DNA of 64,000 bases from Hysterium pulicare CBS 123377 (lineage: Eukaryota; Ascomycota; Dothideomycetes; Hysteriales; Hysteriaceae): assembly GCA_000467715.1 (NCBI GenBank), contig AJFK01001090.1:124001-188000 (forward strand), read 5' to 3'. Shown piece by piece: positions 12,218 to 42,464 of this stretch. Numbering within the stretch: position 1 is the stretch's first letter; each line of letters opens with the position of its first letter. Position numbers and translations under genes: made by a program. The notes under the pieces were generated by a model. It saw only the letters and a list, made by a program, of their open reading frames with translations. It ran no database searches and was not told the origin of the DNA.

Positions 12218-12308
12218 CTATCACTAGAATCCCTCCGTTACCCTACAATTCTTACGCCCCTTTCCACCATACCGCAATCGCCAACCATGATCTTAACCCT
12301 CTCATAGC

Positions 12309-16970: not shown

Positions 16971-17979
16971 TTGGGGAAAACGGGGATGAGGGACTGAGAG
17001 AAAGTCAGGGAGGAAAAGGTTTATACTTCTTTGAAGATTTGTCGAGGTCGCGACTGCTGTATAATACTATGATCAAACAATCGAACAATTATCCAAGAAG
17101 CAACTTCAAATACAGAGTCAAACAGACAAACACTTCGGGAAACAATTCAGAAGAACATCAGACAAGTAAAAGACCGAGAGCGATGGTTGTCTTGTTACTA
17201 GTGAACAACAGGAGATCAACACAGTGATGAACACAAATGAGAGCTTGGACAATGGAAAGCATGTTGGAACGGAAAAGAGCGCTGGAATATCACGCGCAGC
17301 AAAGTCGAAGATCCAACAAACTATAAAGCGAGACGAAAGGACAACGTCACATAAAATCACTAGGACTGAAGTCCCCCGAACCCTTCACAACGGTGATAAG
17401 AAGCAACACAATACAATCGAATGGGGCAGACAGGACGGGACGGACGTGTGTAGATAACCTACAGATAGAATTGCGACAGGTTGACTAGGTGTATCTTAAG
17501 AGAGGAATAACATGATGCGGTACGTCGAAGTAACATTGATCAGGTCAGGAGCGACACCAACACTTACTCAGGCTACGTTGCAACAGGTAGCGATGACTCC
17601 CAAGACACCATCTTACATTTGATACACTCAACAAATGCGAACGTTTACAGCCCGAAGGACAAAAGCAGGTCGCAAGTCCAATAGTATGCAGCCTTATAGG
17701 AGATGATGTTGCGCGTCTTTGGTTATAATACCACATATGTAAAAAGTTTAACAATGCTACGCTAGTATTCAAACAAAGGGATATTTTAATAGATCGAAAT
17801 GACCGTTGCAATGAAAGCGAGAAGTCACAAGCCCTAAATGTACCCGCCGCAAGAGCTGTAAGTCGCTATTTCGTTCAAGATAATAGAATCATGGAAAGAG
17901 ATATATAAGAATTCAATGAGAAGCTTCCACGATGTCTACTTTATTTTTACCACCCAACAGAATTGATGAGCTTCCCAGC
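16971..17979. other. gene-poor spacer
   Basis: A-rich on the plus strand with scattered short open frames. The last 150 bases are probably the 3' untranslated region of the oxygenase gene that ends at 17980. Confidence 0.45.
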
Positions 17980-20216: not shown

Positions 20217-21292
20217 ATGAATACTGGAATGCCCCTCAACACTGGCGCCGAGATTCCTGCCCTGGGGCTCGGCACTTGGCAATCAGAGACTGGGCAGGTC
20301 AAGAAAGCGGTTTCTCATGCCATTGAGGCTGGGTACAGGCACATTGATGGCGCATTTTGCTATCAGAATGAAGATGAGGTCGGCGAAGGACTCAAGGAAG
20401 CCTTCAAGGCGGGAGTGAAGCGCGAAGACGTATTCATTACCACGAAGCTATGGTGTACTTTCCACACAAGAGTAGAAGAAGGACTAGATACGAGTCTGAA
20501 GGCTCTGGGACTGGACTATGTTGATTTATTCTTGATCCATTGGCCAGTCCCAATGAATCCGAAAGGTAGGTCGTCCATCTTCCAAGGTTTATACGTCCGG
20601 GACTCTTGAATGAGTACATATCTATGCTCTACGCAGCAATATTAACAATTCCTAGGAAATCACCCGCTCTTCCCCAAGCTTCCGGACGGTAGCCGTGATC
20701 TCGACCACAGCACAAACCACATCAACACCTGGAAAGCAATGGAGAAGCTGCTCGACACCGGAAAAGTAAAAGCAATTGGTGTTGCCAACTACTCTGTCAA
20801 GTATCTTGAGAAGCTGCTTGCTCAAGCCAAAGTCGTTCCGGCCGTTAACCAAATCGAGAACCACCCCTATCTACCCCAGCAAGAAATTGTCGATTTCTGC
20901 AAATCAAAGGGCATCCAAATCACAGCGTACAGTCCACTTGGTAGCACGGGAAGCCCTCTCATGAAAGAAGACGTGGTCAAGGAAGTCGCAAAGAAACACA
21001 AAGTCACTCCAGGCGTCGTTCTTCTGAGCTACCATCGTAAGGTTCCATATCATAAATCCTCAAGTGCACAAACTAATTCGTTAAAGTTGCTCGGGGGTCA
21101 TCAGTTCTCGCCAAATCCGTGACCCCATCCCGCATTGACGAAAACCGCAAACTCATTGCTCTGGACGAGTCAGATATGGACAAGCTAGAGGGTATCTCCA
21201 AGAGCAAGGGTGTCACACGCTTCGTTTATCCAGCATTCGGTGTCGAGTTGGGCTTCGAGGACAAGAAAGGAGGGGTAGATGTGAGCGGTTGA
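20217..21292 (+). CDS. aldo-keto reductase
   Basis: Three exons (20217-20565, 20656-21036, 21087-21292; introns 90 and 50 nt) encode 311 residues. The AKR catalytic tetrad is complete: D44 and Y49 ([11 protein letters not shown]), K77 (ITTKLW) and H108 (LIHWP). The C-terminal cofactor part [16 protein letters not shown], which binds the NADPH phosphate, follows. Fungal relatives reduce glycerol, xylose, galacturonate or glucuronate. Proximity to myo-inositol oxygenase makes glucuronate reduction to L-gulonate the most attractive role, but this is inferred. An in-frame Met 23 codons upstream would add a leader-like tail; I chose the Met at the conserved start of the fold. Confidence 0.93.
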
Positions 21293-23698: not shown

Positions 23699-26600
23699 CT
23701 AAACATTCTCAAAAGAAAAGCTCGGACTTCCAGGCTCCGCACTAGCAGCAGTTGGTGGCAAGTCCTCCTTCTTCTCACCCTCCTTCCCATCTTCACGCAC
23801 CACAACCCCCATCTTCCCTCCTTCTTCAACCCGAACAATATCAACGCTAACACAATGCCTAACCGTCTGTTTCAGACCCGGCACCATCGCTCTCAGAGTT
23901 TCCAGCTCATCGAATCCCAATTCACGATTCAAGACTTTGTCTTGAGGCTCCCCTTGATCAAGACGACGTTTGAGGTTGTTGATGAAAGGCATGGCTTTCT
24001 TGGATTCGGACTTGTCGATTTTCTTTGAAACGTCCTTGATGTTAATGTTTGGATAGGAGGTGCGGAGGAGATCAATGTATTTGGTTTGCCAGGCGGGGTA
24101 GGATTGTGCGGCGAAGATTGTGATTTTCTTGTCTGTGGGCAGGACGTTAGTTTAAAGATGATGGTGAGGAGTTAGAATAAGAGAGGAGGGAAAAAACCTT
24201 TCTTCGGATCGAATAGAGCTACTTTGCCCTTCGCTAGTCGCTTGACTTGAGCGCCTTCTGCTGAGGTGATGTTGGACGAAGTCGTTCGTACGTATTCGCG
24301 TGCTGCGGTCAGAGATGGGATAGCCTCGGGAACCTTGGGGTACAGAGCATTCTGGATGGTATCGCCCTATATGGAAGTATGATTAGTATCTGCTATGGGA
24401 ATGAGGTGCATCTCATTGACAAACCTTTTTCAAGACTTCCTGCCAGACGTAATCTGCCCAATGCGGTGCAATCGGCGTCAAGAGCAGAGCTTGAAGCTCA
24501 ATATATCGCTTCGCCAGATCTTCATGCATACCAACACCAGCTGCTTTAGTTGCCTCTCGGTAGAAGTCACGGGCGGCGGTAAAGTCGAAATAGCCCGACT
24601 TCAAGGCATTCTTGTACATCGTGGCTTCGTAATTTTGCTTCGTCTCCGCAACTAAGGAGTTCATCTCATTGTCGAACATAGCATCCCATAGAAGTTTAGG
24701 TGAGCCTGACTTTCGCTGGATGACATCAGGGTTCTTGATGCGCTCGTTGTCTCGTGTGTGCTTGTACTTCTCTCCGTCTTCTACAATGACCGCGTCATTG
24801 ACCAGTTCCTCACACCATTTGCGCAATTCATACAGTTTCAGGATGTTGCTGTTCGCCACGGTTTCTTCGAAGTTAGCGTCTTCAATACCATCTCCTGCGT
24901 CCGCGAGAGCAATTCGAGTTGCATCAGCACCAAACTTGCTGACAGCTTGTTCTAGCGTCAAGAAGTTTCCCGTGCTCTTGCTCATCTTCTCGCCGTTCAA
25001 CATTAAATGGCCGTTGACGCGGAAACTCCTTGGCCAATTAGGTTTATCGAAGATAGCAGTGTGGACGTAGAGATTGAAGGTCAAATGATTCTGAATAAGA
25101 TCTTTTCCACTGGTTCGGAGGTCTAGTGGGTACCAATAATCGAACTGTCGTCGGAGGATTTCCAGTTTATTCTTGTCAATCTCGGTCTTAAAGTCGAGAT
25201 CGGTCCGCTCCCGGCGAGCGAAGATGTAGTCCCACACGTCATCTGTCATTTGATCAGGTGTGATGCCCAGAGGTCCGGCTTCTTTTCCGAACATATCTCG
25301 TTGCAGTAGATGCGCAAAGCTATAGTAAGCCTGATATATTGTGGAATCACTCAGAGATTCGACCATGACGGAGTGGTCCCATGGTAATTTCGTCCCCAGA
25401 CCGTAGCTCCGGGCGCAAGACCAATATTTAAGCCAAGCAACGACTTGAATAAAGGCGTGTTTGGACTCTGGGTAATAGAGCTGTAGATCGCTGTTGATGT
25501 GGTCCAACACCTTCTGTGCCCATTCCCCATCGCCTCCATTCTCGGCGGTACCATAGTTCATAAACCATTGGTCCAGAAGTGCAGCCACGCAGACATCGGA
25601 GCTTCTGCTAATGACTAAACCATCCGGTTCTGCATAGTTGAAAGCCTCACCGGCATTGATCAGTTGTTGTTTCACTAGATCCTTAGCTTGCTCGACCGGT
25701 TTGCCCTTAAAATCACCATAGATCATCGTTCCTTTGTAGAACCCTTCCTTGTAGGCTTTCTCTTTGGCTTCCTCAAGCTTCTTCGTATCTTTAGGTGATT
25801 GAATCTTAAGCTCAGCCACAAGCTTCGGTGCTGTTAGGTTGCCATAAGTTGGTGTGTCGATGATTGGGAGGATATCCAGCTCAGCCCATTCTTTCTGAAT
25901 ACCATCTTAAGAAACGTCAGCCTTCCAATTGGTGCTTTGGGATGAGATTACACTTGCAGTATTCAGCCTTCTTCGCCAAATCCGTTACCGTCGCGAAATC
26001 ATCAGGCGAGTCACTTGGTACACACTATTCCACAAGTTAGTCCTTTTCCTGGGAGGTAGCTCCAGATCAACAGGGAGTACTCACAGTCACAACAGCAGTA
26101 CCTTTAGTATCCTTTACGGTCTCCATGGGCAAAATCCTTACACCATCTTTGTGGACAGAGAGTGGTGCGTTGATGATGGTTCCAACAAGGTCTTTACCCA
26201 AGAATTCGACAGCTTGTGGGTATATACCCCATTGTGGGAAGATGCTTTGGAATGACATGTTCCGGGCGGCACGTTCGCTACAAACAAAATACTCTTGCTC
26301 GGAGACCTTAAAGACCCCGTACTTAATGTTGGGCCCTACAAAACAGCACGTTTGTCCGTACATCGTTTCAGGCCGGAGAGTAGCCGGGATGAAGTAGACA
26401 TTTGCGTCAGATTGGAGTTTGCCTTCCAAGGTCTTCTGAGCCTTCTCTGACCACTGCTTGACTTTCAGCTTCAAAGCAGTATACTCTTGGACAGCAACAC
26501 CCTCTCCAGACTGTCTGTCATGGTCCAGACAAGCCTGACCGTCCTTTGGACTGTCTACGAAATTTGTTAGCGGAGAGCACTACATTTTCAGACTGTGGAC

Positions 26601-27785
26601 TGTACGTACAGATGGTGTATCTCTTTCCGAACTTTATCTTACCCATCTCTTTCAGCTTTCGCATTTGCCACGACACGAATGAATCATAATAGGGGTTAGC
26701 ATCAGTGGTGACGAATTGGCGACGCCAGTCAATCCGGGCTCCAAAGCTAGTGAGATCGCGTTTCGCCAATGGTGGGAAGAAATGAATCCAGTAATAGGGG
26801 TCCGCAAATTTCTGGATTTCTTCTAAAGGAATGCCGAGTGCCAACATAATCTGAAATTGATATTTCGTCTTGACCGTTTTCGCTGCAGCCTTGCCCTTCT
26901 TGGCTGAGAACTTGCTCAGATCAGTCTTAGTCTCCGCTTGAGTGGGAGCTGGAGGCAGCGATTGGTTCGCGCCTTCATCGATAATGTCCTCGACTGGACA
27001 TCCCGCAAAGGTCGGACCAAACATTTCGATTTCTCGAACGAGTTTGTCTGCGCATGCTTTGATCTAATATTCACATCAGTCTTAATACTCAACATAACAC
27101 CTCTCAAACAAGGTGATCATAGGTGTAAAGTGGCACAACAAATAGATCGTCCTTCCAGATGCTGATGTCGCATGGTTTGGTATTGGGGTATCCATTGTAG
27201 GCGCCATGGCCAGTTGATGAACGATATTGACTCACAGGCATGCCCGTGACGTGGTATCCTAGAGGAAATAAGGCTCGTTTGCCTTGCATTCTCGCAAACC
27301 CAGCTGTAAACTCGACTTTACTAGCGGTGAAACTGTGACCGGCGTGTAAAGTTCCGTTCATGTATGGACTATGCAAACGTAAGCAGGCAAGGAGATAATG
27401 ATGCTGGCACACAGCAAGGACAAGGCTTGAACAAGACATACTAGGCCATCGTCCCAAAGAACTTGGGATACTTCGAATGCAACTGCTCCGGGGTGGTGGA
27501 ATCGAAAGGCTCTTCCTCCAAGGTCGGAGCATCTGCTTGAAAGACACCCTTCTCTTCCCATAGCTTCTGATACTTTCTCTCGGTCTCGATCAAAGCATCT
27601 CTCTTTTCTGTGTTTTCGATTTTAAGGGTCTAACCACACTCAGCACATTGGACGAAGGATAGCAAGGTTTCAAGCGGATCTCTAGCGAAACCCACATTCT
27701 TTGAGCTGTGTTCAGGATCAAGGACCGTCAAGGTCGCTGTGACAGCGTCATTGGGCAGCTTGTCGGGCGCTGGGACCTCCGCCAT
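23699..27785 (-). CDS. CDC60: leucyl-tRNA synthetase, cytosolic
   Basis: Class I synthetase that charges tRNA-Leu. Exons: 27785-27696, 27629-27442, 27368-27236, 27063-26610, 26554-26085, 26024-25958, 25905-24425, 24366-24198 and 24132-23699. They keep phase throughout and give about 1161 residues, right for the eukaryotic cytosolic form. The HIGH motif appears as HAGH at residues 101-104 ([14 protein letters not shown]) and KMSKS near residue 773 ([11 protein letters not shown]). The editing domain lies between. The intron 25957-25906 has a GC donor (GCAAGT); using it restores AEY-YGIQKEW, while the nearby GT breaks phase. The first exon is the least certain part: [13 protein letters not shown] is clearly conserved, the 30 residues before it are not. 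Intron 27235-27064 is unusually long (172 nt). Confidence 0.95.
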
Positions 27786-28088
27786 TTTGAGCGGTCTCTG
27801 AAGGTGAGAATATGATATTGGAAGAATGTTGGTCGCCGATGCCGCCAGGAGACTTTCTGGCTTCGAAGGAGAGTTTCTTGGCCCAGGCGAGAAGCTCTGA
27901 ATAGAATTAATCCTTTGGAGTCACACTTGAGGCTTACGTCCACAATCTGATGTTGTTTTGCAGGATTATTCGGAGTCATTATTTTGTGCACCGCCAAGAC
28001 GTCTGTGCGTCGGCTTTTATCACGAAGCCTTCCGAGCATCATCAAGATCTCAAATGATTCCGTGCCATCCTAATACAGATATCAAGCC
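27786..28088. promoter_or_regulatory. divergent promoter region
   Basis: A 303-nt spacer between the divergent synthetase and the small membrane protein gene. It must hold both promoters. No clear TATA box is visible. Confidence 0.5.
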
Positions 28089-28587
28089 ATGTTACGAAAT
28101 TTAATACGACGTCCTGCCGAAACTCCAAAACCGTTATTCGACTTCAAAAAGAATCCCTACAAAGCCAAGCGCCAATGGCCGCCGGACTTCACGAAATTGT
28201 CACCAAAGCATCAATTCAGATTTGAGAGACGGTACAAGAGACGGGCAGCGCTGAAATGGGCACGACCGCGGTGGATGAAATTTACGAAGCTGGCACAGTG
28301 GGGTTCAATATTGTGTTTGTGATATGAAGTCATTTGCAATGCCATTGAACGCTCACCATCACAACAGGCGTTCTAACGTACGGGGTCTTGTTTATGGACG
28401 TTGGACAAGAGGATAACACTTTCTCACCCGTAAGTCTAGCATTTAGCTTGTTGAATATTCAGCTAACGAGATGAAGATTCGCGATTGGTATAAAAGCATT
28501 GCAGACTCGATATGGACTCACAGCCAAACCCTCGATCGACCCAGCCCTGCGCGACCACCGAACGCTAGACAACCTCCGAATCAGTAA
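28089..28587 (+). CDS. small membrane protein, likely mitochondrial
   Basis: Three exons (28089-28314, 28368-28429, 28477-28587; introns 53 and 47 nt) in phase encode 132 residues. The first 75 residues are Arg/Lys-rich with almost no acid (MLRNLIRRPAETPKP, RFERRYKRRAALKWARPRW), which suits mitochondrial import and contact with RNA or ribosome. A single hydrophobic segment follows at about 70-85 (WGSILCVLTYGVLFMD) and then a polar tail with IRDWYKSIADSIW. I do not recognise the name; it looks like a conserved fungal inner-membrane or mitoribosome-associated protein. Mitochondrial location is an inference from composition. Confidence 0.75.
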
Positions 28588-29091
28588 TGCCTTTCACGAT
28601 GTACCATTTGCCTTTAGCCTTACGCTTCATGTATATCAGATATATTATAGGAATAATTTACATCCTGCTGGATGTTGGGGGAAGAGGCCGAAGCACGGGC
28701 AGAACACCTAAGAGGTTGAGGTACCATAGAGCTTCCAGGCGGCATGTTCGTTATATTATCAAGGGTATTCAAATCTCATAACTCGAACCATATCATGATC
28801 TGACGGCGTGAGGATTCGCTGTCCATCAGGTTGAGCCAACAAGGAACGATTATATTCATATGTGGATATCCCGTACCTGCGAGGACGCGATTTTGCTATT
28901 CTTTTGTACCCTGCCGCGGATAGCCATCTAGGTGTTTTCTAGAGGACACTACAGACTTGATTCAAAAGCGTTTAGGCCAATTATCAACATGGTACATACC
29001 TTGTTGCAGGGGACCTCCAATTCAATATCAGCAAGATTGAATTTTCGCTCGAGAAGGACTTATTTCACAGACAGAGAAGCTAATGGTAGCG
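28588..29091. other. intergenic
   Basis: 3' region of the small membrane protein gene followed by sequence with no supported gene. The right part may include more of the decayed kinase. Confidence 0.4.
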
Positions 29092-29726
29092 ATTTTCCGC
29101 AGACTGGCATTCCTCGCCTCATGTCTCAACTGTCTTGCGCATGCTCTGGATTTTATTCACGCAAGCACTACCAAGCATATGGATATCAAACTTAAGAACA
29201 TCCTGGTTAAGAAGACGATTCCCGACGCTGAGGTTGATGCCTGTGCCTAGCGCATCTATATTTCCGATTCTGGCTTTTCCCGCTCATTTGCTTCCGAGGG
29301 CCATGGTCGAAATGAGGTTCCCCCTGCCCGAACCCCAAGATATTGCGCGCCAGAAGTTTATGATTATGAAAAGCATGGTCGCTCAGCCGATATCTTCTCT
29401 TGTGGAAGCGTGTTTTCGGAGATTCTAACGGTTCGTAACGGTAGAGGCCTTGATGAATTTGCTCAGGCACGATTGAGGGCGGCATCTACGATGACTTATT
29501 CCACGGCAATCTTGGCGCAGTATTCGACTAGATTGAGCGAATTTTCTCTCCTTGCTACTACAGCTTTGGGGACAAGTTACGGGATATACTGCAGAGGATG
29601 CTGTGTCGGGATCCTATGCAACGACCAAAAGCATCTGAGCGTAGACGGTTCTTCGAAGTGGCATCTCCTTCAGCTATAATCAGATGCTGTGAACCTCCAC
29701 CGGAACAGTATGAAGAAGAATCGTGA
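29092..29726 (+). pseudogene. broken protein kinase-like gene
   Basis: One frame reads a kinase catalytic loop, with HALDFIHAS then HMDIKLKNILVKK (catalytic Asp and Asn present), a stop codon (TAG) soon after, then the metal-binding motif as SDSGFSRS (DFG changed to DSG) and the activation segment end RYCAPEVYDYEKHGRSADIF. Further on a second frame carries a C-lobe end, DKLRDILQRMLCRDPMQRP, to a stop at 29726. The stop, the frame change and the lost DFG show that it is not functional. The N lobe is not found intact upstream. The style is that of fungal accessory kinases, not a core cell-cycle kinase. Confidence 0.7.
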
Positions 29727-31540
29727 ATATTTTATGTACAGGTGCAGTATTATGGCTCACTACCTTATCACTACGTTACACGGCTTACTTGAGGACATTT
29801 GGTTGCAATTAGCTAGTATTGTAGATCCCTCACTGGGGTTCTCGTGTTCTTTCTAATCGTCATCATTCATGACGTTTTTTCTGTAATTTCTTCTGAAGTT
29901 CTTCGTGCTACAATTCATGTCTTCCAAAACGGAAACACATGCTTAGTCTAGTGGCTCCACATTGTCTCATTCCAAAATGGCCAACACAGGCCTCATCTTC
30001 CATCTACAGAGTCTTCTCTCCGCCACGTCACTGGTACCGCTCAAATCCAAAATCGTGCTTCTAGCGAAGTTCATGTGGCTTGGTGTAGAGTGCCATCGCT
30101 CAAAATCTGGGGTTGCGCCATAATCAAAATCGCATTCCAATCATGGAGTGGACCGCTGGAGTGTTAGGTTCAAACACACCTTCACGATGACAATGATGTT
30201 CATAATCTCTCAGCGTTAATGATATTCATCACCATCGCCACCCTACCATGGTGTAATCAATATCACCAAAGATTCCTCTAACTACAAGCGGAAACCAGTA
30301 CGGCTTCCCTCAATCTCCACCGACAATTAGTCATCCCCGACCTCCACGTGACCGCCACCTCATTCCTTCGCCTATATAAACTCTCCCCCCTTCCCTTCCT
30401 CGAACACCACAACACCCTCATGCTTGTTGGAGACCAACAGAGTGAGCGTCAAAGTTCGACAATCAAAGAACACAGCAGCGGGAGGGCCTAAAACCATGTG
30501 GAGAGGCTCACCGATTGGATGCGTGGCTGGGGCTCCAATCAGATGTCGTCGGTAGGTTTTGATCCTCCTGGTTACTGACTCGTATATATAGATTCAAGGT
30601 AGTTTCTACTGGATTGAATGTAGAGTGGTGAGTGGCATGCTTTATTGGACTTGGCATCAAGGAAGCAAAAGTTTTGGTTTTGAGACGATATGTTGGGTGC
30701 GTGACTGTCGGCATGCAACTAAGTCTTGATACTAAATGGAGATGCTGATGTGCCTTATCAGCGAACCCCATTGAAGGTGAATATCATTATCTCTAAGAAA
30801 TTGGCGCAAGACCTGATGTCATACTTCCAGTGCAGCTCATACTCACACCAAAGAACCACCATCGCCTTCTTCAGCTTCTATGCTAACTAAATCCAGTCCT
30901 CCGCGACGCAACGCAACTCTATCAAGCGTAGAACTCCGAAAGGCCCCAGCAGTCAATACCTGCTTGCCCCATTTGATTTGAAAACATAATCTGAGGTCTT
31001 CGGAACAATTTTTGTTCCCCGAACATTACTATAGGGCTTCTGGATGTTCTGAAATTCTGTGTCTGACCTTCCTGGTCCGTGAGGGAGAAGGAATAATGCC
31101 ATTGATCCAAGAGATTTTATATCCCATCAAGATGAATGGACTGACCGGCGAGCGGGATCACGAGGGACTTTTCAAGCAGGGTATTAGTCATGTATCCCTA
31201 ACTTTCTCTCTACTCTTCTAGTTAAACAATCTCGTTTTCCCAGCTTCAGTTCTACTTCACTACCTGCTCGTGGCGCTCGGATTACATCAAGATCTCGACC
31301 AACTGCATGGCCAGAAGCGGAAAGCAAAGAGCCAAGAATAGCGACGCATGGCTCTTGGATCAATACTACAAAAGTATCAGGGACCAATGTTTGGCCTGGC
31401 AGATTGCTCCTCCTCTATGTTCCTAACAGCAGGCAACTGCTCCTACATGGCTGGAGGTTTGGGCAATGGGTAATGCGGCATAAGAAAGCGGGCTGGACCT
31501 CCATCCCTTAGCATGTGGTAACTAAATATGATGATAATAG
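29727..31540. other. gene-poor spacer
   Basis: No supported gene. Short frames on both strands. It includes the isolated plus-strand TATA site listed separately, followed by a frame of only 21 codons. Confidence 0.4.
30373..30380 (+). promoter_or_regulatory. TATA box (TATATAAA)
   Basis: Lies in GCCTATATAAACTC, followed by a pyrimidine-rich stretch and an ATG at 30420. The same 14-mer occurs at 31923-31936. The ATG opens only a short frame (MLVGDQQSERQSSTIK...). Confidence 0.4.
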
Positions 31541-31925
31541 TCATCATCACTAACCAGAGTTCCTACTGCGCCAACTCCGACACGGTCCGACGCACCCCCA
31601 GCTTGCTCAGGGTTTGGCACACCCGGTCCACTGGCTCCGCACCTTGTGTTCCCAATTTCCCATAGTTGGTTGACTTCACACCAACCTTGGCATGTAACCT
31701 AGCTATTAGCTGAAGAAGCAACATAGATATCTTTGCGTGCCAGATGTCGAAGGACTTCATAAAGCCAGCTGTTCTTTAGACTTTGATCTGGGGGGGTGGG
31801 TTTTTCAGTGCGGAACTCAAACAAAGCAGTGTAAGGGAGGTATTTGAACCTGCGGAGGCTATCGATATGAGAAGACTTACAAAGACATTACTAATCTACT
31901 ATCCGACTTTAGTTTCCAGGATGCC

Positions 31926-31933
31926 TATATAAA
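31926..31933 (+). promoter_or_regulatory. TATA box (TATATAAA)
   Basis: Same GCCTATATAAACTC 14-mer as at 30370, followed by a pyrimidine-rich leader and ATGs at 32002 and 32013. It points opposite to the array units. Confidence 0.4.
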
Positions 31934-32012
31934 CTCCCTTTCCCTTGACCTCTTTCCGCTACTACACTGATTTCCAAGGGACTAAGATTATAAGCCCGAA
32001 GAATGCCGAGCC

Positions 32013-32240
32013 ATGCCCGGAGGTAGATATCTGTACCGTATTGTTGGGTTTCGTATTCTTTGGAAAATCATAAAAGCTGACTTGGTCACATCATGCCTCA
32101 ACAGCCGATGGCCTTTCATCAACCGAAAAGGGGCAGCAGACAAATCCATGGTTGCGGAGCGTGGGATCAAATCACAATCTGGAAGGCGCTTCGATGGTGG
32201 AACTCGAGGCCATGGAAGAATTGAAGACTTAGAGGGTTGA
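32013..32240 (+). CDS. possible small ORF behind a TATA box
   Basis: 75 codons starting MPGGRYLYRIVGFRILWK, about 85 bases after the TATA box at 31926. No recognised domain. An earlier ATG at 32002 closes after 8 codons. Weak support. Confidence 0.2.
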   Translation: MPGGRYLYRIVGFRILWKIIKADLVTSCLNSRWPFINRKGAADKSMVAERGIKSQSGRRFDGGTRGHGRIEDLEG

Positions 32241-32755
32241 GAAGATGAAGAGAATTGATACCGCTCATCATCACAGGCACCTACATATGATGCTCATTGG
32301 CCATATCCACTACCTCTCGCTACCTTTTTCTCGTCCTCCTCGCTCTATGTCCCCACTCCAACTACCATAGTCAATTCCGGATTCTGTAGTTGAATTCGAA
32401 TTCGCGAATATCCCAGCCCATAGGCTCGTATTTTGACATGTTTCAGAGCCAGAAACAGATACTCTCGATGTCATCACGTTCAACGTCTTCTCAACAACAA
32501 CAACATGCGAGTACAAGTTTGCCTCGTTTTGGAGGACTAAAGTCCGAGAGACGTGACTCCTGCAATGTCTAAGATATAGACCACTATGAGCCTTGGTGTC
32601 TGTAGATAAGAGAAGAGAGAAGTGGGGAGGAAGATATGGCTTTATAGAAAGGCGAGCAGGATTGAAGTCACGTTGATATCGGTCAAAGAAAGGGAATCGC
32701 GGTATGAGTTAGCGGAGTAGGTTCTTGAAGATAGGGGTGATGATGCCGGGCTTTG

Positions 32756-33091
32756 TTATCCATGCAGCAGATGGTGGTAGTCGTCATATCCTCCGGACTC
32801 TTCAACTTGACCAGACGCACCAAACATCCTATGAAAATCGAGGATTTCGTATTTGACTCCGACCTTCCAAGTCCACGACCGGGTTAATGGCTTCAGCCAT
32901 TTGGGTATATTGACAATCATAGCTGAGAGGCATGGGAAGTGCTCGTTCCAGAACGCAACATCGCGTGCAGTTTGCCCATGTTTGGGAACGGGAGCCACGA
33001 GTCCACAACCATGAGGATCTCGCGTTTCCCTGTTGAATGCAAAAACCCAGAGTCTGGTTCTAAGGTGCAGAGAATTAGAACGGGAGAACAT
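32756..33091 (-). CDS. small ORF of the tandem array (111 aa)
   Basis: An ATG frame of 111 codons placed just after a TATATGAAAG box near 33104. It is Trp/His-rich (RLWVFAFNRETRDPHG, WLKPLTRSWTWKVG) with no signal peptide that I can see. Its DNA matches neighbouring units in at least two blocks, but the frame is broken in the next unit. It may be an expressed member of the family. Confidence 0.35.
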   Translation of the reverse strand: MFSRSNSLHLRTRLWVFAFNRETRDPHGCGLVAPVPKHGQTARDVAFWNEHFPCLSAMIVNIPKWLKPLTRSWTWKVGVKYEILDFHRMFGASGQVEESGGYDDYHHLLHG

Positions 33092-33592
33092 AGAGAGGCT
33101 TTCATATAGGGGTAATAGTCACATTGGTGCTAACTTGATTACTATGTCGGCATAAGTCGCGCGGGCCGGGTTTGAGGAGGCGGATTTTCGCGGTGATGCC
33201 CATCACCTATCAGGAAAAGAGTATGGTAATTATCAGTATAGACCCCGACATCTTCGACTCGACCCGACGCACCCAGATCTCATGGGCCTTGTCGTTTTTC
33301 GCATTTGGCCCCAAAATCTCCGAGCCATGAGCATGAAGCCATTTTCGTGGACATTTTCAGTCTGAAGACAGCCATTCTTGAGGTGCTCGAATGATTTTAG
33401 CTCGTAACCACAACATAGTGTGCAGTTACTGCGGTTTTGGAGACGGTGACATTGGGTTCACAGCCATGACGCTGTAGATCCTTTCTTTTGAAGACAGGAA
33501 ACCAAATGCTGGCTTTGGGGTGAGGATGTGAAAGGTCGATGAAGGAAGAGGAGGATTTATAGCAGAATTGGAGAAAGAAGGTTTGTTAGTGC

Positions 33593-35751
33593 TGAGTCAG
33601 ACCTTGGAAAGGGAGCGGTATACAGTGCAAGTCGCTTGAAGGTGGATTGAGGAGGGTTAGGGGATGAAATTGGTGATGCCATCCATTATTCATGAAAGGA
33701 TATAGGCGTCGGCAGTACGGACTCCTACATCTCGCGTCTTAACCAGATGTCTCTTTAAGCCCCATCTTCGGTATCATTTTGAGTCCGGACTCTCCGATGC
33801 CGCGACCATTTGTATGTATAGAAGCTGTTTGGTCCAGAAACAGCCATTTTATCGGCCTCGAGTGTTTTATAGCTCTCGACAACATGACATCATCTTTGGG
33901 CTACCTTGTGGAGAACCACCAGCCCACAGTCATGAATAAGCTATCTGGGCGTCTTCAAAGACGCAACTCCGGAAGTGCTCCGTGAGTGAAGACGATAGGA
34001 AAGAGAGAAAAGACTGAGGCTTTTATAGATGAGTTGGGGTGGAGATAATCACGTTGGTGCTGAGTCAGGCTCTGGGAAAGGGGGTTCTTTACGCTAAAAC
34101 CGCGCGGGAGAGGCTTGAAGGACGAAAGGTAGGTGCTGTTCATCATCAACAAGAAAAATGGTAATCAGCAGCATATGCTCTCAGTCCCTCAACAAAGTCA
34201 AGCGTATCCAACCTCCATGGTCCGGGTTCCAATCGTTGTTATGGATTGATTCCCAAACGACACATCCGAAAACATCTGTACATCCTCCGACAAAGTTTTG
34301 GCCCCGGAACGGCGTGTTGGGATATTTCGAGATGTGAAAGATTTCTGCACCAACAACATGGGGTTCGAGGATGTTCATTTGCAAACCACACTCCGAGGAC
34401 ATGCCGTAGTGGCAAGTTTTGTATTGTATGAAGTCATCCGGGTAGTGCTTATGAGTGACGGAGAAATGGGCAGGGAAACAAGAGGGAGCTTTAAAGTTAC
34501 CTATGGGGTAGCTTGGAGACGCGATAATTCCATTGGAGCTGAGTCAGCCGTCAGGTAAGAGAAGTGCCTACGGGCCGAAAACAGAATGCTGTATACTGAT
34601 CATTATCAATGAGGATAAATAGTGATTTTCAACAATATATTCACGACTTTCCTCCAGCCAAAGCACCCCATAGACTGGGCTTTTTTCCGCACTTGGTTTC
34701 CAATCCACCACTCTCCACACATGGATCATCTCAACGTCGGATTTTGGTCCAGAGTAGCCCCCTGGAGAGGCAAGCAAGAGTTTTGCTGCAACATGTTTCC
34801 AGATCACCCTCGTTTTGGAAAACCACACTCCGCAGACATTTCTTGGTAGCACTATATTGATCGGACTCATCCAGACAATTTCTTCTTAAGTGACGGAGAA
34901 GTAAAAAGAGAGCGAGAGAGATTTTATAGATGGATTAGGAGGGAGAGTGGAGACAAGCATGTTAGTGCTGAGTCAGTCTTTAAGAAAAATGCTAAATCAA
35001 GCCAGTGGAAATACTATTGAAGTATATCATCAATTGAGCTCATCGAATGAAGACCATCGATCCAGCTATCTCGTTGACGTTGCCAGGTGCACCCAGCACA
35101 ACAACATGTTTCCACTGTTTTCAATCTCCGACTTCTCAACACATGCGTTAATTTTCTGTATTGGTTTTGCAGGTACATTTTAGAAGACCGCTCACCAAGG
35201 CCATGTAACCGTCGGGTTGTTTATTTAAACTTTGCCAAATAGTGCTTTATAAGTAAAGAAGAAGTAGAAAAAAAGCGAGAGGAGGTTTTTATAGACCGGT
35301 TCCATAGGGGATCGTCACGTTGTTGACGAGTCAGCCTTCAAAAAAGAGGAGTAGTCAAATGGTATGAGTTTGAAAGAGGATATAGAGGCGAACGGGTTTA
35401 CATGCTGTGCATCGTCAATGAAAGAATATGATGATCATTAATGATGCAGTCGAGCTTTTCTTCCCGCTCTACCACACCATGCCTGCCATTTTCCCCATCA
35501 GTTGATCTCCAAGTCCACACACTCTACACATATCCCGCTTTAGTGTCGAATTCTGGTCCAGAACAGCCATTTAGCGGATGCTTGGATAGTGTTTGCACCA
35601 TCATCTTTGTCGGGTATCTCTGTATTTTCCGGAGTGTACGAGTTGTACCCAGCCAAACAGTGGTTTGAAAGTAAGGAAGAAGTAGAAAGGGAAGCGGGAG
35701 GAGGTTTTTTATACACGATGTGAGGTGGGGTGTCACGTTGTTGCTGAGTCA
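33593..35751 (-). promoter_or_regulatory. five TGAGTCA sites phased with TATA boxes
   Basis: Exact TGAGTCA occurs at 33593, 34061, 34540, 34969 and 35745, with a degenerate copy near 35328. Each lies about 35-50 bases upstream, on the minus strand, of a TATAAAA-like box (33555, 34020, 34490, 34922, 35287, 35706). TGAGTCA is the core site of fungal Gcn4/CPC1 and AP-1-type bZIP regulators. Steps of 468, 479 and 429 bases show that the site travels with the repeat unit. Confidence 0.6.
34568..34870 (-). CDS. small ORF of the tandem array (100 aa)
   Basis: The ATG lies about 52 bases after the TATA box at 34922-34928. It reads MSPINIVLPRNVCGVWFSKT and is Val/Trp-rich with no recognised domain. 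The first 20 codons align base for base with the start of the unit at 34437 (which closes after 20 codons) and more loosely with the ORF at 36216. Confidence 0.4.
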   Translation of the reverse strand: MSPINIVLPRNVCGVWFSKTRVIWKHVAAKLLLASPGGYSGPKSDVEMIHVWRVVDWKPSAEKSPVYGVLWLEESREYIVENHYLSSLIMISIQHSVFGP

Positions 35752-35910
35752 GAGAATCTGGAAGTGGAGACGGAGGAGGAAAAAGAGCGGTGGAGTAGAT
35801 ATTCCTGTGGTCCACGCAGTATCGAGGTTTGATCCTGTTCTTCGGCATCAGAATTCCAAAGATGCTACTCATCAGCATAAGTCACTGAAGCTCATCACCA
35901 TCATATCGTT

Positions 35911-36216
35911 TTATTCCAGTCCACCTTCTTTACCCAGAGCCATCACCGATATCCCATCAACTCGGTATCTTTTGCCGGTTAGCTTTCCCACCACCCACCA
36001 GCCCATGCCGGTTTCTGGTACCATCTTCTTAATCCCCAGCAGCCATAAAATTCCAAGCCACTTCATTTCAAACCCCCAGAACCCCATGGTGCAACCTCTC
36101 TCACAGTGTGAGAATAACCCCATCGCTCTCACAGACCTATCTATTTTGGAAACCACAGCTGCGGACTCCGGCATTCGCTTTTTGCACATGGTCGACTTGA
36201 TGAATTGAGTCGCCAT
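35911..36216 (-). CDS. small ORF of the tandem array (101 aa)
   Basis: The ATG is about 50 bases after a TATAAAA box (36265-36271), the same spacing as in the 34870 unit. It reads MATQFIKSTMCKKRMPESAA, then a hydrophobic, Gly/Trp-rich centre (MGFWGFEMKWLGILWLLGIK) and a basic end. No family is recognised. Of the array members this has the best promoter-to-ORF arrangement. Confidence 0.45.
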   Translation of the reverse strand: MATQFIKSTMCKKRMPESAAVVSKIDRSVRAMGLFSHCERGCTMGFWGFEMKWLGILWLLGIKKMVPETGMGWWVVGKLTGKRYRVDGISVMALGKEGGLE

Positions 36217-36496
36217 CTCCTTGACGGAGAAGTGTAGTGGGGTTGAAGGGAAGAGAGAGCGAGGTTTTATATTCTTTCGGGAGAAGTTCTTGAAGGGAGT
36301 GGATCACGAGACCTAATCTAGGCCTACCTATGCAGCTGAGTGCGAGGTCATGGGAAGATAGTGGGATAAGCACGTGGAATCGAAAGCACGAAGTATGACT
36401 TTGGAGCGAGGAGATCTGTTATCGTAAGAAAGAGAGAGAAAGAAGAGTCAAAGAGAATTTCAGTCATCAAAGTTCCGCTTTAATGCTCATCACCAC

Positions 36497-36721
36497 CTAC
36501 CTCATAATCAAGCTCGTCACCATCATCCCCACTCTCCCAACAGCCAACCCTTCTCGCCCATCCCCCCTCTCAACCACCAGCCCATGTTCGATTTTTTTGG
36601 CCGAATTGAACCGCACCCAAACCCCACCAACCCACATAATCGTACTTCCAGAATGTGGATAGATTCCACCATACCAAAGCCATTCGCGGTTGAAACCCGG
36701 CCAATGCAGCAGAACAGACAT
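36497..36721 (-). CDS. small ORF of the tandem array (74 aa)
   Basis: Reads MSVLLHWPGFNREWLWYGG and later KKIEHGLVVERGDGREG. It shares the CCACCAGCCCATG block and the Trp-rich centre with the unit before it. A TATATA box lies near 36860. The open frame extends upstream to 36979, but that part would overlap the promoter, so the shorter form is given. Confidence 0.3.
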   Translation of the reverse strand: MSVLLHWPGFNREWLWYGGIYPHSGSTIMWVGGVWVRFNSAKKIEHGLVVERGDGREGLAVGRVGMMVTSLIMR

Positions 36722-36730
36722 CACGAAGGA

Positions 36731-38059
36731 TAAGGGTCGGTTTTGGCACCCGAATTCCACAGCATGGGCGGAATTGCGCAACACGTTCGAGTAAAGCTCA
36801 GTAGGCAGTAGTCGGTAGAGGAAAGGAAAAGAGCTTGAGACGAGGGGAGGAGAATATGTATATAAGTCGTTGGCGGGATTTGGGAGGATGCTGGCACGTG
36901 GTCCCAGCCTTGACCGACTTTCTAGAGTGCCCTGACTCCGATTAGCTGCGCGGTTGCGATGGAGGGCGGAAGACAACATCGACGGGTTCCGGAATTATCG
37001 ATGTAGGTGATCATGTCGCGAGCCATACATCACGACCAGCCAAAAGTGAACCGGCCGTTGAACTTTTCAAATATTCAATTATCACTCCCTACTTTCCACA
37101 ACCTCTGATCAACCCGATCAACCCAATCCTTGTTTCCATCTCCTCTCCCTCAAACTCAGACCCCATCACCACAAGCCCCGTATCAGCTCTACCACTCTCC
37201 TCCCCAACACAGGTAAATTACACGACTCCCCAACCAACCCAAGTCAATTCACCCTTCTCAAAAACTCCAAGGTCGATTGTAAAGGTAATCCTCCGCGTTC
37301 CGACCAATCCCAACTTCCTAACCAGGAACAAGACCCAAGAGAGACACACACGCACAGAGGAAAATGATGGTGAAAGCAAAACGAAGGCAAGAAAAAAAGG
37401 ATATGCCAGAGATCTATAAATATATGTACCCGTTTGGCCAATTGAACATGCCGTTAGGGTCTTCGTTCCGCGGTACCCAGAAAGCCAATCACCGCCCCAA
37501 GAAGCGCTAGGAAACAAATTACGGACAAGGGGGAGTCTGAGCCTGCCAGGACGACGAAGATAAAGATGGGGTATAGCTGGCAAAACGCGCTCGCTGGTCC
37601 CTAAGAAGAGAAGGTAAAGGCTGGAATTTATACAGGTGAGAGCATGGTATACACAGACGCCTTCGAAGAATTAGGTGGGCGTCCTTGGTTTAAAACTGAT
37701 CGATCCTGAAGCTCGAAGCTTGAACGGGGGGAAGGAGGGTATCGAATCGAAAAAGGCGCCAAATGACGGGATTCTGAAGTATGCATTACCGAAAAATCGA
37801 TTGTGGAATAAAAGGAAGCCTCCAGAAAGAACATAGATTAAGCCGTTTAATTGCGCCGATTGACTCCGTGTTGTATGCAGGTGACGGGCAATTACTAACT
37901 GCGCCATCGTGAACGCTGATGAGACGTCTATAATTACGCACTTGATTCGTGCAGTTGTGATTGCTTTTGTTGAAGTCGTATGCCGTGGCCACATTAGGTA
38001 GATGTAAGAAAGGGCAGTCGCTAAGATTGGAGATAAAAAGTTGTCGTAGAGAGGAAGTG
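36731..38059. other. gene-poor spacer
   Basis: Short frames only; a TATATA site near 36860 belongs to the last array unit. 37.7-38.05 kb is probably the 3' flank of the KRE6-like gene. Nothing else is supported. Confidence 0.4.
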
Positions 38060-40348
38060 TTATGTAGAGCAACCGTCCATTAGTGAGTTCTTTGGCCACT
38101 CATAACCGGTTTGTTTCCTAGTGATGTTAGTTCGGTGTCATTAAACTTTGAACTGGTAGAGTATCCTTACCATAACGTATGATTTGGGTTATTGTACGCT
38201 TCAGGATGTCGCGCAATGTATGATGTAGTCGGGTAGTCCGGAGGATCGCAGGTCATAATTTCGTCGCCCTCGTCTTGATAGATTCGAATATAATCCAAAC
38301 GCATCGTTGCGGGAAGAGTAGAGGCGATACCAGTGAGATTGATGGCAGAGAAACTGTTCGACATACCGAAATTGACGATGATAGACATGGGTTCCTCAGG
38401 GATCACTCGTTGTCCAATATTTCCGTTTGGTCCAATAGCCCTAGCATCCATAGTCCAGGTCTCTGCGTCTCCCACGTGCCAGGTAATGTAGCCGCTATCA
38501 CCAGTCTTGTATTCGAAAGCATATTTCTGGTATGCTTTACCATCGTACCAGTCGTTGTTCAGGTTTGAGAGACCCGAAATAGCCTGTTGGAAGGGACCAC
38601 CTTGGTAGGAGTTCATCGTAGTGATGGAGTGGTCGTAGACCTCAAGGAAGTCTGGGTATAATTGTTAGCGCAATGAAAGGGAATGAAGGCTTTTAACTCA
38701 CTATAATCCGGTCGGTACCAAATGTCAAATGGAGCAGACTGGAAACTTTGAGACACAACGCCAATACCGTCTGTATTTCCTGCGCCCAGAAACGTTACGC
38801 TGGCTTCGACAGCATCGATTTCCGGAGCACTTCGTGACTTTCCAGCATTAGGATGATCTGCACCAGAGCAGGTGCAGGCCGGCAGACGCATTCCCGGAAG
38901 GAAGCTGAGACCGTCTGTAGTGCTCTGGTTCGGTGTGATGCCTGCATCGCATTTGTCCCAGTAACTGTATGGCCACAACCCATCGGTGGTGGAGGCATAT
39001 CCTGGCCGACCTAGATTTCCCATGGCCCAGAAACCGGGCCAGAATCCAACGGTGTCACCTCGACCCGGAAGCGATATGCTGGCTTCCATGTGACCGCCTT
39101 TGAAGCACATCTTGTTCCAAGATTGGAGCATACCAGAACGATAGTTAAGCCCATTGTTCTTGAACTGGTCGAACTTAATGTTCAAGGTACCGTCCTGCGT
39201 AGTGATCGCATCAGGATCATACCACTAGGCATAAGGTTAGCATTTTAGCAGTTTTAGTAAGAATCCCACAAAAAAGCTTACCTCCAGATCCTGTGTGACA
39301 CCATACCATATGTCCACACCTTGAAAATAAGGGTCGTCACCGTCGTAAAAGGTTCGGCCGTCAGTATTGAATTCGTCAGAAAACTTATTTGGTCAGCACA
39401 CTATCTTCCAGTTGAGGTAATTGCGGTACTCACCACCAGGGTCTGTTTGGTGCCATCATGTGAAGTTCTGGACTTGGCGCTATCAGGTGTCGTTGTATCA
39501 ACGAGACTGGTACGGATATTCTTCATAAGAGGGGTGTTACGGATACCGTCTATACACAATGGATTGTTTGTGCATGGACCGACTGTTGGTGTTGTCAATT
39601 TGTGGACAAAAGTCCTACAGGAATGAGTCAGTAAAACTTGCAACGATGTTCATGTATCTTAAAAATAACCCAAGATTGGAGACCGAACGTACAATATAGG
39701 ATAGCCGATGAATAGTAGGAGCACTCCTACTGTGATAAGAGCTAGACCTCCAACATTCACCAACCCGCGTCGTGAGAAGATGTCGCAATCCCGCTTCTCC
39801 TTCTCATTGGGATCCGGATTGTGCAGCCAATCGTCCTTCTCAACATCTTCAGGAAATAGAAGCAGACCAGCCGATGGTAGAATGTTGTATTTTTCCGAGA
39901 CTGTCTGGGTGTTGAGGTCTTCGTCGCTTCCGGCTCGCGAAGGTGCCCTTGAGTCGTCAAACGGTGACACGAAAGGTCCCATTCGTGAATCACGACTGCC
40001 CTCTGAACTCCAACTTGTCCTTCGCGACGACATCCCGGAAGGCGATCGTGAGGGAGAATCATCACGAAACCTTTTTGTTCTCAACTTCTTCGGTGGTAAA
40101 AGGAGCTCGGCAGATTCTGCAACTGCACCTTGTCTGTACAGAGAACTCGCCGACTGTGGTGATCGTAAACTTGGGGAGGTACCGGGTCGTGTTTGATTTA
40201 ATAGCGAGCGTGAGGAGTTTTGCCGGGTGGCTTGGGGCCGCTGTGCGGATTGCGTGTCGATGGAGAGAATGTTGTCGGTCCCTGAATTGAGGCGGATGTG
40301 AGGAGGAGCATTTGCCCTTGACGGCGGCGATGCGTCGGGTGAGTCCAT
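38060..40348 (-). CDS. KRE6: KRE6/SKN1-type beta-1,6-glucan assembly protein
   Basis: Six exons (40348-39693, 39614-39434, 39383-39282, 39224-38702, 38651-38171, 38117-38060) in phase encode 666 residues. The family members are type II membrane proteins of the secretory pathway needed for beta-1,6-glucan in the cell wall. Residues 1-195 are a Ser/Arg-rich cytosolic tail, 200-218 (GLALITVGVLLLFIGYPIL) the membrane segment, and the rest is a GH16-like lumenal domain with the acidic motif EIDAVE at 448-453 in place of the EIDxxE catalytic site. The last exon adds the typical ending EWPKNSLMDGC. Length is close to the yeast protein (about 720). Confidence 0.95.
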
Positions 40349-42464
40349 TTCGAAGAGTAGAATAGGGCGAGAGGCGTGAAAGGGTTGATGTTAGAGAGCT
40401 GTCGATGCGAAGGTCGAGGAATGGCCAAACGAGTGTTGATGTAGTTGGTGGTACAAAGTCGAATTCCAAGCGATGGAGGAGGTCTCGTGGCTCGATGTCA
40501 GGGCAACCAGTCGCTCGCAGTACCAAATTCCACCAGCAGAAGAAGTTTGACACAGCAGCACTGTAGGAGCTGGATGAATGGAGCGGTTTGCGGCTTGGAA
40601 GAGGGTGAGACGTCGAAGGAGGGTGTATTATTGCCCAGGGGAGAGGTCGCTCCTGTCCGAAGTTGGAAGACCAGGGTAGGCCAGGAGCGCGCTCCACAGT
40701 TAACTTTGACGGGCACGCGGGCGAGAAGGAGGAAATCGCTGGCAAGACAACGAAGTAGAAGTGGCAATGCAAGAGCACGATGTCGAGAAACGAGCGTGGA
40801 GAAAGCAACTGGCGGTGGTGTTGCTGTGTTGAGGGTGAAATGGTGGCAAGCAGCAGAGCCAGCGATCCAAGGTGCGCCCTGGAGGACCAGCAACGACGAA
40901 ATTTGGCTCGTCCCTGGGCAGGGAGATCTTGACGCTCAATGCTACGCGGGCGAATCACGGCGAAGGGGGCGGTGGGGCGTTTAGGAGGCGGCGATTCCTC
41001 GCTGCAAGCTTACGCAGGTTTTTGCTAGACTGTGGCTTGCTAAATTTATCCGTCAACTCTCTCAGCGAATGTCATCATGGCGAGAACAACGACAGGTTTC
41101 GACTCGGTTTGATGCCCGGCGGTGCAGTCTGCCTCTTCTCGTCGCTGGAACATGGAATTCTGCGACTTCTGGAGACCAGGTATACTTGGCACGGTCATAG
41201 GAGCCGTGATACCGGCTCTTTCAATTGTCAGCCAGCCATTTTCCCCTGAGCCGCGATAAGTGAGAACCTTGACCTCTCCAATAAATCGTCGCCCGTTAAT
41301 TATGCCGCATACAGCAGCAGCGTAACGGCCAAGAGATTTAAAAACACCTCGATTTAGCTAGATTAGCTCCCTTTTCCAGCCATCCTGCCTGGCTTCACGT
41401 GCATTTTAACATACAAACAACTTCTAAAACACGGCATGCAAAGGGTCCCCTCCACAAGTCCGCCGTCTGTGTTTCTCTCGTTGTGGCCGAACGGGGCTGT
41501 GCCCCGGCCTATTGATGCTTCTTATCTGCCCAAATAAGATCGCTAAGGAATGCTGTTACGCGTTCCGCACCACATAAAATAACTGTCCGATCCTCTAATT
41601 TTCGTATTTCGATCTGAAGCAAACCGTTAGCGGGTAATCATGAAGATCGTTTTAGCCTTCCATTCGGCACATTAGGGAGCTGTGCCAGTCAGATGCATTT
41701 CTTTGGATTGGGTACATAGAGTAGTGGAATGCGAAAACATCTGCAGGACATCTGCAGTATATCACCATAAGAAACAAAGCTTATTGCGACGCCAATCACG
41801 ATATCACAATAATGTCTATTCATGGTAGCTTACTGGTCTGCCGACCAGACTTTGACACGTCGAGACTGGGCAGGCTCGCGATAACGAAAAACGCCTGGAG
41901 ACGCGTTCGAAGCAACTTTAGCGTCAGGTTCTCTTGATAGTTTGCAGTACATACAGACATAAAATCCCAATAGATCTATGGAGTACCTACTCATATACTG
42001 GACATAAAGTCCATCAGATCACTCGCTGACTCGCTATAAACATTGAATTCGCCTTAGCACGACGTTGTGGCTGAAAGGATCCGACACTGGAGCTTCTAGA
42101 AACCCGCTAGTAAGTACCACAACATAGAATGTATATCTACTTTGGTAAACAGTCTTCAGTTCCTTTCGGGCCTTATAAAGCTAGGTAGAATGAAAAAATC
42201 TTTGCTATGATCCCAATTCAAGCCTTCTTTGGGTTTGAGCGCATAGGCATTATATTCCACATTTCTTGTTACCACGAGAGCTGTACTGTGATGACCTTTG
42301 CATAGCCAAGCTCAAACCCACACGTATGGTGTCGACTATTCCACATTGCTATTTGAAGCAATTGCCATATTGACTTGCGCCGTCGCCAAATAAATCACCA
42401 TACCCAATCCAAAAGCAAATATACCGTTGCCTACATCCCAAAAAGGCCACCACCGTAGCATAAC
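40349..42464. other. long upstream region of the KRE6-like gene
   Basis: 2.1 kb without a supported gene. Immediately upstream of the start the minus strand stays open for hundreds of bases in more than one frame, consistent with a long GC-rich 5' leader rather than a second protein. A CACGTG E-box lies at 41396-41401. 41.5-42.4 kb is plain. Confidence 0.45.

What the first reader, a model, noticed from the sequence alone, without database searches (positions are those of the whole stretch)
31540..36730. Tandem array of small TATA-driven gene units of unknown function
At least eight minus-strand units share an ordered set of blocks: bZIP-type site, TATA box, pyrimidine leader, start region and inner blocks such as CCACCAGCCCATG. 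Some units still encode 74-111 residue proteins with no family I know; others are decayed. Promoters look better kept than the coding parts. This could be a fast-evolving small-protein family, a source of noncoding transcripts, or a promoter array.
Basis: partly seen in the sequence, partly recalled or inferred. Interest (0 to 1): 0.78.

Follow-up and report, generated by a model that had tools for sequence, protein, structure and literature searches.

The report
Eroded tandem array of small genes
In a fungus-like chromosome segment, about ten head-to-tail copies of a short gene-like unit have kept a similar switch-on region and start position while what follows has drifted apart, so this looks like an old, mostly decayed tandem gene family rather than a set of related working proteins.

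Summary
The array is real. Ten minus-strand units (U1-U10, 36912 to 32201, 358-590 bp each) are homologous: a profile built without the unit being tested still finds it, E 1e-6 to 5e-30 for nine and 0.003 for U1. Identity among U3-U9 falls with distance along the array (Mantel p 0.0036), as tandem duplication predicts. The best-kept part in U3-U9 is the promoter (column identity 0.564 against 0.462 in the body, p 0.019): TGACTC 38-50 nt above the TATA in U3-U8, TATAWA in 8 of 10 units, an ATG 89-99 nt below the TATA in 8 of 10.

The protein reading is not supported. Six ORF proteins are not detectably related, the five ORFs of single units lack host-like codon usage, no Pfam cut-off is reached, and minus frames fit no better than plus frames. 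From the conserved ATG only 2 of 8 units read past 31 codons. Long minus-strand ORFs do exceed shuffles. No RNA fold signal, no RIP, no Rfam match. My verdict: an old tandem small-gene family in decay; some promoters may still fire. No fungal genomes or RNA data were available.

The parts
36351..36912 (-). U1, least secure unit: CACGTG near 36900, TATATA 36864, ATG 36765 (99 nt below TATA, 14 codons); a 74-aa ORF 36721-36497
   Evidence: leave-one-out E 0.0026; not found by promoter-only or body-only profiles; positions
35761..36350 (-). U2: TATAAA 36271, ATG 36174 (97 nt, 87 codons; two ATGs lie above it in the same frame, the 101-aa ORF starts at 36216)
   Evidence: leave-one-out E 1.3e-6
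35343..35760 (-). U3: TGACTCA 35751, TATAAA 35713; no ATG 89-99 nt below the TATA
   Evidence: leave-one-out E 7.6e-23
34985..35342 (-). U4: TGACTC 35333, TATAAA 35293, ATG 35204 (89 nt, 18 codons); the shortest unit
   Evidence: leave-one-out E 1.2e-13; not found by the body-only profile
34556..34984 (-). U5: TGACTCA 34975, TATAAA 34928, ATG 34839 (89 nt, 11 codons); a 100-aa ORF in another frame from 34870
   Evidence: leave-one-out E 1.2e-28
34077..34555 (-). U6: TGACTCA 34546, TATA variant CTTTAAAG 34496, ATG 34402 (94 nt, 73 codons); another ATG above it at 34437 (20 codons)
   Evidence: leave-one-out E 3.8e-25
33609..34076 (-). U7: TGACTCA 34067, TATAAA 34027, ATG 33933 (94 nt, 10 codons)
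   Evidence: leave-one-out E 2.4e-19
33141..33608 (-). U8: TGACTCA 33599, TATAAA 33561, ATG 33467 (94 nt, 13 codons)
   Evidence: leave-one-out E 4.8e-30
32683..33140 (-). U9: bZIP site eroded, TATATGAAA 33108, ATG 33012 (96 nt, 31 codons); the 111-aa ORF starts at 33091, 17 nt below the TATA variant
   Evidence: leave-one-out E 4.4e-19
32201..32682 (-). U10: CAACGTGA kept, TGACTC lost, TATAAA 32646; no ATG 89-99 nt below the TATA
   Evidence: leave-one-out E 2.1e-14; promoter alone not found (0.91)
31905..32336 (+). P2, possible inverted unit converging on U10: TATATAAAC 31926, ATG 32013 (87 nt), 75-aa ORF 32013-32240
   Evidence: E 7.8e-6 with the profile that leaves out U10; overlapping hits at 0.002-0.26 in 5 of the other 9 leave-one-out searches and none listed in 4; at best E 0.064 once 32201-36912 is masked, which also masks its last part: inconclusive
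31525..31597 (-). Possible tail of a further minus-strand unit
   Evidence: E 0.042-1 in the 5 of 10 whole-unit leave-one-out searches that list it, best 0.0067 with body-only profiles: inconclusive

Best explanation
An old, probably lineage-specific family of small RNA polymerase II genes that grew by head-to-tail duplication in a filamentous fungus and is now largely in decay. Shown: ten homologous minus-strand units; U3-U9 most similar between near neighbours; a common layout in the middle of the array (TGACTC / AACGTGA element, TATA about 40-50 nt lower, pyrimidine-rich leader, ATG about 94 nt below the TATA, body, 3' block, next promoter); promoter better kept than body in U3-U9; reading frames from the conserved ATG ending within 31 codons in 6 of the 8 units that keep it. 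Inferred: the ancestor was a small protein gene under a bZIP activator (TGACTCA is the Gcn4/CpcA-type site, recalled); duplication by unequal crossing-over and birth-and-death left copies whose promoters may still drive short RNAs while their coding content is gone or free to drift.
For: Leave-one-out homology; reversed control; mean identity 0.481 in U3-U9 against 0.383 +/- 0.007 in 15 shuffled sets, and decline with distance, Mantel p 0.0036; gradient promoter > leader > body > spacer and p 0.019; ATG 89-99 nt below the TATA in 8 of 10 units against 19% at random positions; frames of 10-31 codons in 6 of those 8; no codon signal in the five ORFs of single units; no shared frame beyond the strand controls; ORFs not alike; no RIP; no fold signal.
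Against: Minus-strand ORFs of 100 aa or more exceed shuffles (4 against 0.58 +/- 0.74), which complete decay does not predict; one of the four (35878-35540) runs across the U3 promoter, and that one scores -0.006 per codon, inside the range of the training ORFs. The promoter excess has a modest p value (0.019) and fails for U1, U2 and U10. Decay without any constraint would not by itself spare promoters, so some transcription may still be selected. The 'conserved' ATG is not the first ATG below the TATA in U2, U5 and U6. At one pair of anchors 6 of 7 units share the same length modulo 3 from the ATG to the 3' block (chance 0.02), which would favour coding; it falls to 3-5 of 7 over the grid of nearby anchors. 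No transcription was shown, and no relative in another fungus could be examined, so an ancestral protein is inferred from the ATG position alone.
Confidence: 0.52

Rival explanations
1. A working, fast-evolving small-protein family: several copies encode proteins of 73-101 aa whose sequences diversify too fast to be recognised.
For: Excess of long minus-strand ORFs (4 of at least 100 aa against 0.58 +/- 0.74); conserved ATG position; U8/U9 collinear over about 92 codons with one 1-residue gap; an anchor-dependent hint of a kept length modulo 3.
Against: Codon scores -0.19 to -0.07 per codon for the five ORFs of U1, U2, U5, U6, U9, against -0.055 to +0.181 for the ten training ORFs; U6 and U9 lie near the upper quartile (-0.073) and the others below the median to near the lower quartile of 74 other window ORFs of 70-130 aa. 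The plus strand gives equal cross-unit scores (U8/U9 89 on plus, 85 on minus, all ten units; frame assignment 675 against 679 in 7 units). Gaps are multiples of 3 in 34 of 141 cases between ATG and 3' block, 13 of 77 in promoter and leader, 23 of 66 in the 3' part (7 units). Six ORF proteins not similar beyond shuffles in 15 pairs (lowest 7 of 300). AlphaFold mean pLDDT 43.7 and 36.2 for the two tried, single sequence, which says little.
Confidence: 0.17
2. A functional array of noncoding transcription units: short RNAs, or the act of transcription, matter, so mainly promoters and leaders are kept.
For: Promoter and leader best kept in U3-U9; no coding signal; repeated compact layout.
Against: Folding not clearly better than shuffles on either strand in any of ten units (z -1.75 to 1.47, 40 shuffles each); no Rfam family at gathering score; bodies differ strongly between units.
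Confidence: 0.2
3. A transcription-factor binding or enhancer-like array: repeated TGACTCA/ACGTGA sites titrate or recruit a bZIP factor, and the rest is filler.
For: 5 of the 13 TGASTCA sites of the 64-kb window lie in the array at the same place in the unit, with an ACGTGA element a few bases away in some.
Against: TATA, leader and ATG are kept at similar spacing as well; bodies are homologous beyond the site.
Confidence: 0.07
4. Chance or low-complexity similarity.
For: Pyrimidine-rich leaders inflate similarity; U1, and the pieces below 32200, are weak; single pairs in shuffled sets reach identity 0.503.
Against: Leave-one-out E-values to 5e-30 and the reversed control; the decline with distance.
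Confidence: 0.02

Closest known systems
Tandemly duplicated, lineage-specific small-gene clusters of filamentous fungi undergoing birth-and-death (recalled, general concept)
   Same: Head-to-tail copies, near neighbours most alike, mixture of longer and broken reading frames
   Different: No protein family recognisable; promoter and start position kept better than the coding part; no relatives could be examined
Gcn4/CpcA/CPC1-type (TGACTCA) amino-acid-control promoters (recalled)
   Same: Exact TGACTCA 38-50 nt above a TATA box or variant in five units
   Different: Only a motif match; one paper search on the site found none; no factor binding tested
De novo gene 'proto-gene' transcripts (recalled concept)
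   Same: Short, poorly conserved ORFs behind a working-looking promoter
   Different: Here repeated about ten times in one array by duplication

Membership tests
Tandemly duplicated gene family | Head-to-tail homologous copies above chance | tested here: met
Tandemly duplicated gene family | Neighbouring copies most similar | tested here: met
   U3-U9: mean identity 0.508 at distance 1, 0.506 at 2, falling to 0.409 at 6, Mantel p 0.0036
Protein-coding paralogue family | One shared open reading frame with host-like codons | tested here: not met
   an anchor-dependent hint the other way
Protein-coding paralogue family | Recognisable domain or relative | tested here: inconclusive
   Pfam, eight array frames: no match at cut-off, one at E 0.086 (DUF6248). 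PDB sequences: none for two ORFs, one weak hit for the third (E 0.0079, 28 residues, no stretch passing alone). Viral contigs, two ORFs: none. No fungal collection was available
Structured noncoding RNA or C/D snoRNA array | Fold better than shuffles, or Rfam match at gathering score | tested here: not met
   three C/D-box hits far below gathering score, E 4.5-4.7, one of them inside a unit
RIP-mutated repeat | TpA/ApT high and (CpA+TpG)/(ApC+GpT) low | tested here: not met
   array 0.64 and 1.27; whole window 0.72 and 1.23
bZIP-regulated promoter | Factor bound and activating | not testable with these tools
   motif only

The most novel reading that the evidence does not exclude
A nursery of new small genes: an array in which duplication copies a promoter-leader-AUG cassette that selection maintains, while the sequence behind each AUG is free to explore, so that each copy offers the cell a different short peptide or RNA under one common bZIP-type control.
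Probability: 0.1. Interest if true: 0.75.

Novelty: new member of a known kind. Interest (0 to 1): 0.36.

Why it matters
If the promoters are under selection while the bodies are not, the locus would be a compact natural experiment on what remains when a gene family loses its coding content, and a place to test whether new small proteins or RNAs arise behind ready-made promoters. If it is plain decay, it is an ordinary relic.

Tried and rejected
Coding potential by codon usage, six-frame cross-unit comparison with plus, reversed and complement controls, gap length modulo 3, and an RNAcode-like permutation score gave no strand- or frame-specific signal. The permutation score's listed best windows had z 3.0-7.2 on both strands and in several frames, so I judged its null too loose. 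A first gap count is not used: of the seven alignments printed there, three (U6/U8, U6/U9, U9/U10) had slid out of register; one search replaces it. A kept length modulo 3 from ATG to 3' block in 6 of 7 units was dropped because it depends on the anchors (3-5 of 7 over the grid). C/D-box snoRNA idea: three hits with E 4.5-4.7 in 29900-37500, only one of them (35841-35905) inside a unit, against none of that type among four hits in two control regions of equal size. A search for C and D boxes with a terminal stem found nothing in the array region or in any of 15 bins of the window, so it was too strict to decide. I leave the idea as weak. RIP as the cause of decay: rejected. Inverted unit P2 and the tail at 31597-31525: left inconclusive. 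P1, promoter-like on + at 30344-30397: best E 0.12 with a promoter profile; a whole-unit alignment showed only scattered agreement; not claimed. The whole genome is not held. Six of seven literature searches returned no paper; the other listed two unrelated papers, of which I saw only the listing and the start of the abstract. No paper was opened. No claim about what is in print is made beyond those searches.
Full report
What the window is. It carries genes of a fungal type: class I tRNA-synthetase segments (24416-25906, minus; Pfam synthetase and anticodon-binding domains; 'leucyl' is my own reading), a SKN1/KRE6 glucan-synthesis protein (38616-39224, minus), myo-inositol oxygenase (18055-19089, minus) and others. 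'Filamentous fungus' is my inference from these genes and from intron-like breaks; no tool named the organism, and no whole genome is held. The array lies between the tRNA-synthetase and SKN1/KRE6-like genes.

The array is real. Self-BLAST of 30500-37600 finds related stretches in phase with a repeating unit, best E 1.7e-13. I cut ten minus-strand units of 358-590 bp at the promoter element and tested each with a profile built from the other nine: nine give E 1e-6 to 5e-30 and U1 gives 0.0026. The reversed window, searched with a 7-unit and a 10-unit profile, gives at best 0.16. Mean pairwise identity of U3-U9 is 0.481, against 0.383 +/- 0.007 for 15 sets of shuffled units (highest single shuffled pair 0.503), and it falls with distance in the array (0.508 at distance 1 to 0.409 at distance 6, Mantel p 0.0036). 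With the first 150 and last 60 nt left out, 7 of 10 bodies are still found by the others (E 1e-11 to 0.0026; not U1, U2, U4), and with only the first 105 nt used 7 of 10 promoters are (U3-U9). So whole units were duplicated, not only promoters.

Layout. TGACTC stands 38-50 nt above the TATA in U3-U8; full TGACTCA in U3, U5, U6, U7, U8, which hold 5 of the 13 TGASTCA of the window. TATAWA is present in 8 of 10; for U6 and U9 I accepted CTTTAAAG and TATATGAAA. An ATG lies 89-99 nt below the TATA in 8 of 10, against 19.2% of random minus-strand positions (binomial 6e-5, but the units are related and the interval was chosen after seeing them, so this number is only a guide). It is the first ATG from 30 nt below the TATA onwards in 5 of the 8; U2, U5 and U6 have others above it. 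From that ATG the frames are 14, 87, 18, 11, 73, 10, 13 and 31 codons in U1, U2, U4, U5, U6, U7, U8 and U9. A TGATGA-rich 3' block lies roughly 57-92 nt above the next promoter element in U3-U9 (my hand count).

Conservation. In U3-U9 (21 pairs) the alignment score above dinucleotide shuffles is 0.138 per nt in the promoter, 0.087 in the leader, 0.050 around the ATG, 0.042-0.044 in the body, 0.044 in the 3' block and 0.009 in the spacer. Column identity is 0.564 in the promoter, 0.497 in the leader, 0.462 in the body and 0.509 in the 3' block; promoter against body, block permutation p 0.019. For U1, U2 and U10 against all units the promoter shows almost no excess (0.015) and the 3' block the most (0.041).

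Is anything encoded? For: the minus strand of 31540-36912 has 13 ATG-started ORFs of at least 50 aa and 4 of at least 100 aa, against 6.8 +/- 2.2 and 0.58 +/- 0.74 in 500 shuffles; the plus strand has 9 and 0. One of the four (35878-35540) runs across the U3 promoter, and the 111-aa ORF of U9 starts 17 nt below its TATA variant. Against: codon scores of the five ORFs of U1, U2, U5, U6 and U9 are -0.19 to -0.07 per codon, where the ten long ORFs used for training give -0.055 to +0.181 when each is left out (of these ten, five have a Pfam match, three have none and two were not scanned). The promoter-crossing ORF scores -0.006, inside that range. The best common frame assignment over 7 units scores 679 on minus, 675 on plus, 663 on the complement and 593 on the reversed letters. 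Gaps are multiples of three in 34 of 141 cases between ATG and 3' block, 13 of 77 in promoter and leader and 23 of 66 in the 3' part (7 units); the length from ATG to 3' block agrees modulo 3 in 6 of 7 units at one pair of anchors but in only 3-5 of 7 over nearby anchors. Six ORF proteins compared in 15 pairs are not alike beyond shuffles (lowest 7 of 300). U8 and U9 are collinear over about 92 codons with a single gap on minus, but about equally so on plus, which shows few frame-shifting gaps between these two and no more. In the first codons after the conserved ATG, U4-U9 show no strong difference between codon positions, with the third slightly more variable when 8 or more codons are counted: at most a faint hint of past coding. 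Pfam gives no match at cut-off for eight array frames; PDB sequences give one weak hit for one of three ORFs; viral contigs give nothing for two ORFs. No collection of fungal genomes was available, so absence of relatives is not shown.

Noncoding RNA? No unit folds clearly better than shuffles, and no Rfam family reaches its gathering score. Of three weak C/D-box hits one lies in U2's 3' part and two lie below the array near 30.2 and 30.8 kb; two control regions gave four hits, none of this type; my box-and-stem search was too strict to help. RIP is not visible.

Edges. On the plus strand 31905-32336 (P2) has a TATA box, an ATG 87 nt lower and a 75-aa ORF, and matches the unit profile at E 7.8e-6 when U10 is left out of the profile, with overlapping hits at 0.002-0.26 in five of the other nine searches; with 32201-36912 masked the best remaining match is E 0.064. 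I list it, and the tail at 31597-31525, as inconclusive.

Conclusion. Shown: a tandem family with promoters conserved above bodies in its middle part. Inferred: a small-gene family in decay, perhaps still transcribed. The most novel reading not excluded is a maintained promoter-AUG cassette behind which sequence is free to vary.

Noticed in passing
window 10655-11157: A separate tandem repeat of about 161 bp, 2 to 3 copies, with TATAAAACT in two of the copies by eye; it lies ahead of a possible plus-strand ATG near 11190. The 4.7-kb bins starting at 9401 and 14101 have the highest TpA/ApT of the bins computed (0.94, 0.90).
   Followed up: no
window 15575-15913: Tandem duplication of a 172-bp unit, 2 copies, 84% matches.
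   Followed up: no
window 29251-29676: Piece of a protein kinase domain on the plus strand (Pfam Pkinase, E 7.7e-8, profile positions 138-194 of 263), with a stop just ahead of it: a decayed kinase gene, or an exon behind an intron.
   Followed up: partly
window 5803-21119: Oxidoreductase of the GFO/IDH/MocA family, myo-inositol oxygenase and aldo/keto reductase within about 15 kb: possibly an inositol-use gene group.
   Followed up: no
window 30344-30397: Plus-strand CACGTGA plus TATATAAA promoter-like stretch resembling the unit promoters, E 0.12 with a promoter profile.
   Followed up: partly
window 26601-49400: TCATCA (TGATGA on the minus strand) is more frequent in the overlapping 7.6-kb bins that start at 26601-41801 (11, 13, 7, 9, 9) than in the ten others (1-5).
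   Followed up: partly
window 13143-13438: Two trinucleotide arrays, ACC and CGA.
   Followed up: no
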